A stretch of 64,000 nt of DNA from an uncultured Pseudomonadota bacterium (GTDB lineage Bacteria; Pseudomonadota; Gammaproteobacteria; Methylococcales; Methylomonadaceae): contig CAISXF010000097.1 of the NCBI GenBank assembly GCA_903889445.1, positions 1-64,000 of the forward strand. Reading direction: 5' to 3'. The position numbers and the translations under genes are program-made. Positions 35,022-37,505 of this stretch are shown piece after piece (position 1 is the stretch's first letter; each line of letters opens with the position of its first letter). The notes beneath the pieces were generated by a model, which saw only the letters and a program-made list of their open reading frames with translations, did no database searches and was not told where the DNA came from.

Positions 35022-36029
35022 ATGATTTTAGCAGGCGATATTGGTGGTACAAAAACGTTGTTAGCCCTTTTTGATGGTGAAATTTGCGTCGCGAAACACC
35101 GTTTTGAAAGTGCGAATTATCCGACATTTCATGACTTGTTGGCGGATTTTTTAGCGTTGATTCCTAGCGTAAAAATTGACACCGTTTGTTTGGGTGTCGC
35201 CGGAGCGATTGTAAACGGTGATTGCGAAACAACCAATTTACCGTGGCGATTAACCTGCCTTGAAATTGCGAAACAATTAAACGCGCAAAAAGTTTCATTA
35301 CTGAATGATTTAGAAGCGGCGGCGTGGGGCGTTTTATCGTTGCCAGAAAGTGATTTTGTCGCGCTGAATCCAAACGCTAAAACGCAACGTGGAAATTGTG
35401 CGGTTTTGGCAGCGGGAACCGGTTTGGGCGAAGCGATTATTTTTCACAATGGTAAGCAACATTTTGTCATTGCGAATGAAGGCGGGCATTGTGATTTTGC
35501 CCCGACAGACGCGCAACAGATTGAATTACTTTCGTTTATGCACGCGCGTTATCCTGATCACGTCAGTTATGAACGATTAGTTTCTGGCGTGGGCATCGTG
35601 GCAATTTATGATTTTTTGAAACAATCGGGCGATTACGCACTTTCCACTGAGTTGGAAGTACAATTGCAAATGGCTGACGATTCGGCAGCGATTATTAGCG
35701 CGGCGGCAATCGCGAAAGGCGACGAATTATGCGTGGCAACGTTGCAATTATTTGCGAAAATTTACGGTGCCGAAGCGGGAAATTTAGCGTTGAAATGTTT
35801 GCCTTATGGTGGCGTGTATTTGGCGGGTGGAATTGCCGCAAAATGTTTACCCGCATTGCAAGAAGGCGCGTTTTTGGAAGGATTTTTAGCGAAAGGACGT
35901 TTTCAGAATACACTCGAAAAAATCGCGGTGAACGTTTGTACTCAGCCCGAAGTTGGCTTGTTGGGTGCGTTGTATTTTGCACAAAACGACAAATCTACCT
36001 TGCTAATGTTGACATCCTCCCCGCCCTAA
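35022..36029 (+). CDS. glk: Glucokinase with IS-derived C-terminal tail
   Basis: Glk phosphorylates glucose with ATP. The 335-residue protein shows the phosphate-1 loop GDIGGTKTLLALFDG, SLLNDLEAAAWG, the ATP-site AGTGLGEAI and the metal/sugar site NEGGHCDFAP, ending in the family-typical QPEVGLLGALYFA. The last six residues, LTSSPP, and the stop TAA come from the end of an IS200/IS605-type element: the stop codon lies in the loop of its terminal hairpin. The native end was therefore replaced, but the catalytic core is whole and activity is probably kept. Confidence 0.93.
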   Translation: MILAGDIGGTKTLLALFDGEICVAKHRFESANYPTFHDLLADFLALIPSVKIDTVCLGVAGAIVNGDCETTNLPWRLTCLEIAKQLNAQKVSLLNDLEAAAWGVLSLPESDFVALNPNAKTQRGNCAVLAAGTGLGEAIIFHNGKQHFVIANEGGHCDFAPTDAQQIELLSFMHARYPDHVSYERLVSGVGIVAIYDFLKQSGDYALSTELEVQLQMADDSAAIISAAAIAKGDELCVATLQLFAKIYGAEAGNLALKCLPYGGVYLAGGIAAKCLPALQEGAFLEGFLAKGRFQNTLEKIAVNVCTQPEVGLLGALYFAQNDKSTLLMLTSSPP

Positions 36030-36045
36030 ACGGCGGGGATTCCTA
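36009..36045. mobile_element. IS200/IS605-type right-end hairpin
   Basis: The end begins TTGACATCCT and contains a perfect 7-bp hairpin, CCCCGCC / GGCGGGG with loop CTAAAC (36019-36038). This is the familiar right end of TnpB-only (IS1341-group) elements. On the minus strand it overlaps the 3' end of tnpB and would form the scaffold of an omega-RNA, whose guide would be read from glk sequence below 36009. The loop holds both the glk and the tnpB stop codons. Confidence 0.82.
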
Positions 36046-36850
36046 CAGCTAGACGCTCATGTCCGAGCGCGAGAATATTCTTAGCCACATTAACATCTCT
36101 GTCATGCGTCGTGCCACACTCGGCACAAGTCCATTCTCTTATTCCAAGTCCTGCTCTACCTTTCGGACTATTTGCGGATATGAGTCCGCAACACGAGCAG
36201 GTTTGGGCAGTGTAGCTTTCGTTGACTTCTATAAACACGCCTTGCGTCGCTATCGACTTATATTCAAGTTGTGTTTTCAGCATGAACCATCCCGCATCTA
36301 AAATAGACTTTGCCAGTCCGCTTTTTGCGAGTTTCCGACTGCTGACGTTGCCAACGATAATTAAACTGTTTTCGCGCACGATTTTGTTGGTGAATTTATG
36401 TATTGCGTCCTTGCGGGTATTTTTTATTTTGGCGTGAATCGCTTTAACGCGCTTTTTATTCTTCGCTCGTTGTGCTTTTCCGAGTTTCAATTCTAAGTTT
36501 CTATAACAATTTTGTCTTGCAAAGCTATCGCCATTTGAACAGGTTGCGGTTGTTTTCAAACCTAAATCAATGCCAATCTGTCCGCCTTCGGCTTGCCTTG
36601 CGACGGATTCAAGTTGAATAACTATGTTGAAATACCAACGTCCGCGTGAATCTTGACTAAAACAGCCCGAGCGAAAATCCAATTTCGACAAATCCAACGT
36701 GCGAAAATCTTTGCGGCGCAAATCGGCAACGTGTGTTTTATCAGCATTTTTCAACTTTTGTTCGATTTCAACGCGCGTTAAATCTGCCGCGAAGACATTT
36801 AAACTCAATGCTAACGTCGTAAAACCTAAAAGCATTTTTTGTAATTTCAT
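36026..36850 (-). CDS. tnpB: Chimera: pentapeptide-repeat protein N-terminus + TnpB C-terminal nuclease part
   Basis: The ATG at 36850 has GGAG eight nt upstream and starts a signal peptide (MKLQKMLLGFTTLALSLNVF, cleaved near AA). Residues 22-60 look like a secreted pentapeptide-repeat protein (ADLRR KDFRT LDLSK). At about residue 57-63 the sequence turns into TnpB: CFSQDSRGRWYFN, RuvC-I GIDLGLK (Asp95), VGNVSS at the RuvC-II position (Gly167-Asn168, no Glu), a zinc finger (Cys218, 221, 242, 245) and RuvC-III HDRDVN (Asp252). The N-terminal RNA/DNA-binding part of TnpB, well over 100 residues, is missing. Probably inactive as a guide-directed nuclease; the signal peptide may export it. Confidence 0.8.
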   Translation of the reverse strand: MKLQKMLLGFTTLALSLNVFAADLTRVEIEQKLKNADKTHVADLRRKDFRTLDLSKLDFRSGCFSQDSRGRWYFNIVIQLESVARQAEGGQIGIDLGLKTTATCSNGDSFARQNCYRNLELKLGKAQRAKNKKRVKAIHAKIKNTRKDAIHKFTNKIVRENSLIIVGNVSSRKLAKSGLAKSILDAGWFMLKTQLEYKSIATQGVFIEVNESYTAQTCSCCGLISANSPKGRAGLGIREWTCAECGTTHDRDVNVAKNILALGHERLAVGIPAV

Positions 36851-36871: not shown

Positions 36872-37252
36872 TCAAAAATCCGCTAATTGAATCTCAGGTA
36901 AAAATTTAAAATCCTTGCGGTTATAGGTGAACAACGGGATTTGATAATAAATCGCCGTCGCACCAATTACCGCATCGGGTAAAGCCAAACCCTGTGATAA
37001 ACGATAAGTGCGAATATAATCAGTCGCTAAATCAAAAATCACCTGTTGCATATCCAGCAATCGAAACGAACGTAGCTTTTTCTCAATGGCTCTCAACTCA
37101 TTTTTATTTCGTGCGCCTTGCAACAGTTCCATTTCAATTACTGAATTGATAAACAGCGTCATATTACGATTTTGTAACTCGTTTAAAACGTGACTACGTT
37201 CATTCATAAAGTCGATAATGACGCAGGTGTCACACAGCACATAATTAGACAT
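36872..37252 (-). CDS. vapC: PIN-domain ribonuclease toxin (VapC family)
   Basis: A 126-residue PIN-domain protein, the toxin of type II VapBC modules, which cleaves RNA such as tRNA in a magnesium-dependent way. The acidic active-site residues are present: Asp8 in YVLCDTCVIIDF, Glu42 in EMELLQGAR, Asp93 in ALPDAVIGATA and Asp114 in YNRKDFKFL. The start overlaps the end of the upstream antitoxin gene by 8 bp. The chimeric tnpB gene begins 22 nt downstream. All catalytic residues are intact, so it should be functional. Confidence 0.9.
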   Translation of the reverse strand: MSNYVLCDTCVIIDFMNERSHVLNELQNRNMTLFINSVIEMELLQGARNKNELRAIEKKLRSFRLLDMQQVIFDLATDYIRTYRLSQGLALPDAVIGATAIYYQIPLFTYNRKDFKFLPEIQLADF

Positions 37253-37505
37253 GATTCTCTCTTTGCCAAGCCATCGTTCTTAAATTTCGTCCGAAATTCG
37301 CGGCGTCGACAACGTCTGCAAAAGGCAATACGTCATTATTTTCGTCATTCACATCGTAATCAATTGAACGCGAACAACGCAACGCATCAACAACGGATGG
37401 TGTTTTTTGCAAATGTGGAAACTGTTGCAACAATCGAAAAACTAACTCCAAATAGCCCTCATCGAGTTGTTCAATTTCTTGTTTTAAATCTTCTTTTGTA
37501 ATCAT
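37245..37505 (-). CDS. Antitoxin partner of the PIN-domain toxin
   Basis: An 86-residue protein placed directly upstream of the PIN toxin and overlapping it by 8 bp, the usual antitoxin-first arrangement. The N-terminal part (KEDLKQEIEQLDEGYLELVF) is a predicted helix pair as in DUF2281/VapB-like antitoxins, and the C-terminus is acidic then basic (FGRNLRTMAWQRENHV), suited to wrap the toxin. The DNA-binding fold is not recognised with certainty. A ribosome site (GGGAGAA) precedes the start. Confidence 0.75.
   Translation of the reverse strand: MITKEDLKQEIEQLDEGYLELVFRLLQQFPHLQKTPSVVDALRCSRSIDYDVNDENNDVLPFADVVDAANFGRNLRTMAWQRENHV

What the first reader, a model, noticed from the sequence alone, without database searches (positions are those of the whole stretch)
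36026..36850. In-frame chimera of a secreted pentapeptide-repeat protein and a TnpB nuclease half
A good ribosome site, signal peptide and the first pentapeptides of an exported protein run, without frame change, into the C-terminal RuvC and zinc-finger part of TnpB. The N-terminal RNA- and DNA-binding region of TnpB is gone. Either the TnpB element lost its left part by deletion into a host gene, or the host gene captured a nuclease domain. The signal peptide would send it to the periplasm, an unusual place for a RuvC fold.
Basis: seen in the sequence. Interest (0 to 1): 0.7.

Follow-up and report, generated by a model that had tools for sequence, protein, structure and literature searches.

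The report
Transposon scar fused to host gene
A broken transposon gene (tnpB) was joined by a chance DNA rearrangement to the first quarter of a secreted host protein gene, giving an open reading frame found in one genome only, while intact copies of both genes exist in relatives; it looks like an ordinary rearrangement scar and not a new protein.

Summary
In detail: 36029-36850 (-) is a 274-aa open frame. Residues 1-60 are the signal peptide and first pentapeptides of a secreted pentapeptide-repeat protein; residues ~58-274 are the C-terminal half of an IS200/IS605 TnpB, without REC and most of WED. Both parents exist separately in the same genus (apparently an unnamed Methylococcales): the ~241-aa pentapeptide protein in nearly every species, a 374-aa TnpB (about 90% identical) in three. 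The window's own genome also holds an intact pentapeptide gene, split over two contigs that overlap by exactly 141 bases. None of 300 other genomes sampled from the order has the fusion. It lies where two loci, separate in the closest relative, meet: glk plus the IS right end on one side, the pentapeptide promoter side with vapBC-DUF1566-copA on the other. The join falls in a 21-nt patch of similarity (8-nt core GATTTTCG) read in the same frame by both genes, which accounts for the preserved frame. Best reading: a microhomology-mediated rearrangement that decapitated an IS605 element inside a redundant gene copy. Catalytic and zinc residues persist, so a small chance of residual function remains. 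Relaxed selection could not be shown; misassembly is unlikely but not excluded. Interest is low.

The parts
36029..36850 (-). Chimeric ORF, 274 aa (stop codon 36026-36028)
36671..36850 (-). Pentapeptide-protein part: signal peptide and first ~4 pentapeptides (residues 1-60)
   Evidence: DNA 92% to the intact gene in G010, 89% to the intact copy in the same genome
36029..36691 (-). TnpB part: end of WED, RuvC with D95, E211 and D252, and CxxC...CxxC zinc finger
   Evidence: DNA 90% to full-length tnpB of G010 and G003; alignment A1
36671..36691 (-). Join: 21-nt patch shared by both parents (TTGTCGAAATTGGATTTTCGC), 8-nt exact core GATTTTCG at 36672-36679, same frame in both (LSK-L/F-DFR)
36009..36060 (-). 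IS200/IS605 right end (GC-rich hairpin, terminal ...GGATGTCAA)
   Evidence: same end next to unrelated flanks in G010, G003 and G001; strong fold
35996..36121 (-). Probable omega-RNA/right-end RNA scaffold; weak, sub-threshold Rfam match to HgcC
35022..36029 (+). glk (glucokinase); its last codons and stop now come from the joined IS end
   Evidence: homology to G010 glk stops at 35994
36872..37505 (-). vapBC-like toxin-antitoxin pair just upstream of the fusion (PIN-domain gene 36872-37252); belongs to the ancestral pentapeptide-locus side
   Evidence: a remnant of the upstream gene sits at the same place in G005

Best explanation
This is a rearrangement scar. An IS200/IS605-family element with divergent tnpA and tnpB had inserted at the 3' end of glk. 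A recombination at a short patch of similarity inside tnpB and inside one copy of a secreted pentapeptide-repeat gene then joined the two loci, discarding the left end, tnpA and the N-terminal part of tnpB on one side and the last three quarters of the pentapeptide gene on the other. Because the patch encodes the same peptide motif in the same frame in both genes, an open frame resulted. The protein, if made, would be a signal peptide plus a RuvC/zinc-finger fragment without the parts that bind target and most of the guide RNA, most likely non-functional. Shown: both parents, the breakpoint, the shared patch, uniqueness, and the redundant intact gene. Inferred: the order of events, the recombination mechanism, and the lack of function.
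For: Full-length TnpB (374 aa, about 90% identical) in G010, G003 and G001, and a separate intact pentapeptide gene in those genomes and in most of the genus. An intact 241-aa pentapeptide gene remains in the window's own genome across C2/C10, contigs that overlap by exactly 141 nt. Synteny: in G010 the pentapeptide gene lies between rsmE and DUF1566-copA, and glk lies on another contig followed by a haem-oxygenase-like gene and a phytochrome-like gene; the window joins glk to the copA side. The N-terminal part of this tnpB, its tnpA (only a 30% relative is found) and the sequence that follows glk in G010 are missing from the genome. The join lies in a 15/21 similarity patch in the same frame, one of only 28 such windows among about 780,000 pairs. 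Only the window's genome has the fusion among 301 of the order and 61 searched with the whole protein.
Against: The frame is still open, and the RuvC D, E, D and four cysteines are intact. dN/dS over the TnpB half is low (0.13-0.16), only slightly above that between full-length copies (0.07-0.11); most of that divergence may predate the fusion. The two pentapeptide 5' copies in the genome differ by 11-13%, so a recent simple duplication does not account for the second copy.
Confidence: 0.84

Rival explanations
1. Assembly artefact: the metagenome assembly joined reads of a tnpB copy to reads of a pentapeptide allele, and the fusion does not exist in any cell.
For: The genome is in 121 contigs at 95% completeness; the exact 141-nt overlap of C2 and C10 shows graph branching inside the pentapeptide gene; the two pentapeptide alleles differ by about 11%.
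Against: The join is in the interior of a 67-kb contig; the overlap length points to a k of about 141, while the parents compared share exact words of no more than 11 nt, too short to misjoin at that k. No contig holds the missing N-terminal tnpB. The altered glk end is consistent with a real IS insertion.
Confidence: 0.07
2. A new functional gene: the host recruited the RuvC half of TnpB behind a signal peptide as an exported or membrane-side nuclease.
For: Ribosome site, signal peptide and catalytic residues are intact; the RuvC/TNB core is predicted to fold (pLDDT about 70-90 over most of residues 90-270); no stop or frameshift.
Against: Found in one genome only; the REC and WED parts that bind target and omega-RNA in ISDra2 TnpB are lost (PMC10097598); the N-terminal 53 residues are modelled at very low confidence.
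Confidence: 0.03
3. Simple decay in place: glk and a pentapeptide copy already lay near each other in this lineage, an IS605 element sat between them, and one local deletion removed the left part of the IS and the rest of the gene.
For: The IS right end and the truncated host gene are adjacent, as expected for a one-ended deletion; the relatives are draft genomes, so distances between the loci are not known for all.
Against: In G010 glk and the pentapeptide locus are on different contigs, each with other neighbours; rsmE and an intact pentapeptide gene are elsewhere in the window's genome, so more than one rearrangement touched this locus.
Confidence: 0.06

Closest known systems
Full-length IS200/IS605 TnpB of the same genus (G010:C9, G003:C25, G001:C163) and ISDra2 TnpB (PDB 8bf8, 8h1j)
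   Same: About 90% identical RuvC/TNB half and same right end in the genus; RuvC aspartates and four cysteines line up with ISDra2 TnpB.
   Different: The first ~155 residues (WED beta-1, REC, most of the second WED segment) are replaced by a host signal peptide; no tnpA or left end. In the whole subfamily the RuvC-II glutamate is at the alternative place (ExxxxxxCxxC), described as 'Ealt' in PMC10711439.
Secreted pentapeptide-repeat protein of Methylococcales (intact ~241 aa, e.g. G010:C3:3115-3840)
   Same: Residues 1-60 about 90% identical, same upstream locus (copA, DUF1566).
   Different: The repeat domain (residues 61-241) is lost.
Decayed or truncated IS elements and IS-borne rearrangement joints (general knowledge)
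   Same: One end and part of tnpB kept, the rest lost at a breakpoint.
   Different: Here the frame happens to stay open into a host gene.

Membership tests
TnpB (IS200/IS605 RNA-guided nuclease) | RuvC catalytic triad D-E-D | tested here: met
   D95, E211 (alternative position, six residues before the first Cys), D252 present (motif as in PMC10711439)
TnpB (IS200/IS605 RNA-guided nuclease) | CxxC...CxxC zinc finger (TNB) | tested here: met
   CSCC at 218, CAEC at 242; Pfam TNB 1e-21
TnpB (IS200/IS605 RNA-guided nuclease) | REC and WED domains for TAM, target and omega-RNA binding | tested here: not met
   Residues 1 to ~155 of the parent are missing; ISDra2 REC is 13-116, WED 1-12 and 117-176
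Complete IS200/IS605 element | Left end and tnpA present | tested here: not met
   No close tnpA or tnpB N-terminus in the genome
Complete IS200/IS605 element | Right end with hairpin | tested here: met
   36009 onward, same terminus next to different flanks in three relatives
Pentapeptide-repeat protein | Long run of A(D/N)LXX repeats forming a beta-helix | tested here: not met
   Only about four repeats left; no beta-helix in the model
Conserved (domesticated) fusion gene | Presence in more than one species | tested here: not met
   Only the window's genome among 301 of the order
Conserved (domesticated) fusion gene | Purifying selection after fusion | tested here: inconclusive
   dN/dS 0.13-0.16 vs 0.07-0.11 among full-length copies; 5 of 18 lineage-specific codon changes nonsynonymous

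The most novel reading that the evidence does not exclude
The fusion is expressed and exported, and its RuvC/zinc-finger core acts as a guide-free nuclease or nucleic-acid-binding protein outside the cytoplasm.
Probability: 0.03. Interest if true: 0.6.

Novelty: new member of a known kind. Interest (0 to 1): 0.13.

Why it matters
As a rearrangement scar it matters little beyond annotation: automatic pipelines would name it a TnpB or transposase with a signal peptide. It is a clear example of how a short shared peptide-coding patch can give an in-frame chimera by chance, which is worth remembering before a lone fusion ORF is called a new gene. If the protein were exported and active it would be a RuvC nuclease in an unusual compartment, but nothing found here points to that.

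Tried and rejected
Conservation of the fusion: searched 61 genomes with the whole protein, then 301 genomes of the order with a 47-aa stretch across the join; only the own genome covers both sides. Exact junction DNA in viral contigs: none. A reciprocal product (tnpB N-terminus with pentapeptide C-terminus): no tnpB N-terminus in the genome. A tblastn extension of TnpB homology upstream of the fusion start was inspected: the part upstream of the join shows only scattered similarity, so I treat it as a spurious gapped extension. The idea that the missing canonical RuvC-II glutamate was damage to the fusion was rejected: all close full-length relatives have VGN/IGN there and carry the glutamate at the alternative place. 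dN/dS was too blunt to date the fusion or test selection after it. Promoter scan uninformative. Paper searches found no report of such a fusion, but they were few and of open-access text only.

Full report
What is there. The window's ORF at 36029-36850 (-) encodes 274 residues. Pfam sees only the IS605 OrfB and TNB domains. DNA comparison gives a clean two-part structure: 36009-36691 matches full-length tnpB genes of the same genus at about 90%, and 36671-36850 matches the 5' end of an intact secreted pentapeptide-repeat gene at 76-92% in the species compared. The two matches overlap by 21 nt.

Origin. The window lies in a 2.49-Mb, 121-contig genome. Nearly every genus member has one pentapeptide gene of about 241 aa; G010, G003 and G001 carry a TnpB of about 374 aa with the same C-terminal half, and in G010 a divergent tnpA lies next to it. 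G004 shows about 25 matches to the right end of the same IS; all five that I opened stop at a contig end, as expected of a multicopy element.

The junction joins two loci. In G010, the closest relative, the pentapeptide gene sits between rsmE and a toxin-like gene, a DUF1566-like protein and the copper ATPase, and glk sits on a different contig before a haem-oxygenase-like and a phytochrome-like gene. In the window, hemE-glk is followed directly by the IS right end, the tnpB 3' part, the pentapeptide 5' end, vapBC, DUF1566 and copA. G005 has a remnant of the vapB-like gene directly upstream of its pentapeptide gene, which supports that the right half of the window is the ancestral pentapeptide locus. 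The sequence that follows glk in G010 is not in the window's genome, nor is the N-terminal part of this tnpB or a close tnpA. glk itself has lost its native stop and now ends about a dozen residues beyond the conserved part, inside the IS end.

The host gene was redundant. Contig C2 holds pentapeptide residues 1-118 and contig C10 residues 73-241 plus rsmE; the two contig ends overlap by exactly 141 nt and together encode an intact 241-aa protein. Its upstream neighbour differs from that in the relatives examined (a formiminotransferase-cyclodeaminase-like gene, judged by eye), so this side was rearranged too. The two pentapeptide 5' ends in the genome differ by 11-13%, about as much as either differs from G010, so the second copy is an old duplicate or was imported from a relative; which of these is open.

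Why the frame is open. The parents share a patch TT(g/a)TC(g/a)AA...GATTTTCG(c/t), read in the same frame as LSK-L/F-DFR. The patch reaches 15 of 21 identities, which only 28 of about 780,000 window pairs do, and the join falls in it. The exact core is 8 nt, which is not rare in itself (longest shared word 11 nt; codon-shuffled controls mostly 9-11). Microhomology-mediated joining is therefore the likely mechanism (inference), and the preserved frame needs no selection.

Could it function? The RuvC D95, E211 and D252 and the four cysteines are present. The glutamate is in the alternative position used by 'Ealt' TnpBs (PMC10711439), as in the close full-length relatives, so it is not damage. 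The REC domain and most of WED, which in ISDra2 TnpB recognise the TAM and share in omega-RNA binding (PMC10097598), are gone. The right-end RNA region is retained and folds strongly (sub-threshold HgcC match). AlphaFold2 models the RuvC/TNB core with moderate to good confidence and residues 1-53 with very low confidence (mean pLDDT 68). dN/dS over the TnpB half is 0.13-0.16 against 0.07-0.11 between full-length copies; this neither shows nor excludes relaxed selection, because most of the divergence may predate the fusion.

Uniqueness. Only the window's genome, among 301 drawn from the order, matches across the join; the exact junction is absent from the viral contigs.

Verdict. Misassembly is possible but unlikely because the join is interior to a 67-kb contig and the parents share no long exact word.

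Noticed in passing
G004 contig ends (L172, L173, L174, L175, L176): About 25 matches in this genome stop ~114 nt inside the right end of the same IS605 element; the five opened are all at contig ends, suggesting a high-copy, recently active IS that breaks the assembly.
   Followed up: partly
36029-36850 and full-length relatives L086-L118: This IS605 TnpB subfamily (Methylococcales, Thiofilum, Thiothrix, Chromatium) has the RuvC-II glutamate at the alternative position (NE.Y....C) with a DLG, not DPG, RuvC-I motif; more distant Streptomyces relatives L133/L134 have VED at the canonical place instead.
   Followed up: partly
36872-37505; L043 4206-4686; L035 3871-4176: The toxin-antitoxin slot upstream of the pentapeptide gene varies between species: vapBC here, a remnant in G005, a different toxin-like ORF in G010.
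   Followed up: no
35985-36029: glk has lost its native stop codon; its last residues (about LTSSPP) are encoded by the IS right end.
   Followed up: yes
L034 (G000:C2) 1-1261: The intact pentapeptide gene of this genome has a formiminotransferase-cyclodeaminase-like gene upstream, unlike the relatives examined: a second rearrangement at the same gene. The two pentapeptide 5' copies differ by 11-13%, unexplained.
   Followed up: partly
35996-36121 (-): Sub-threshold Rfam match to the HgcC RNA family (23 bits, E 0.013, full model length) over the IS right-end RNA; may mean that HgcC is related to TnpB guide RNAs.
   Followed up: no
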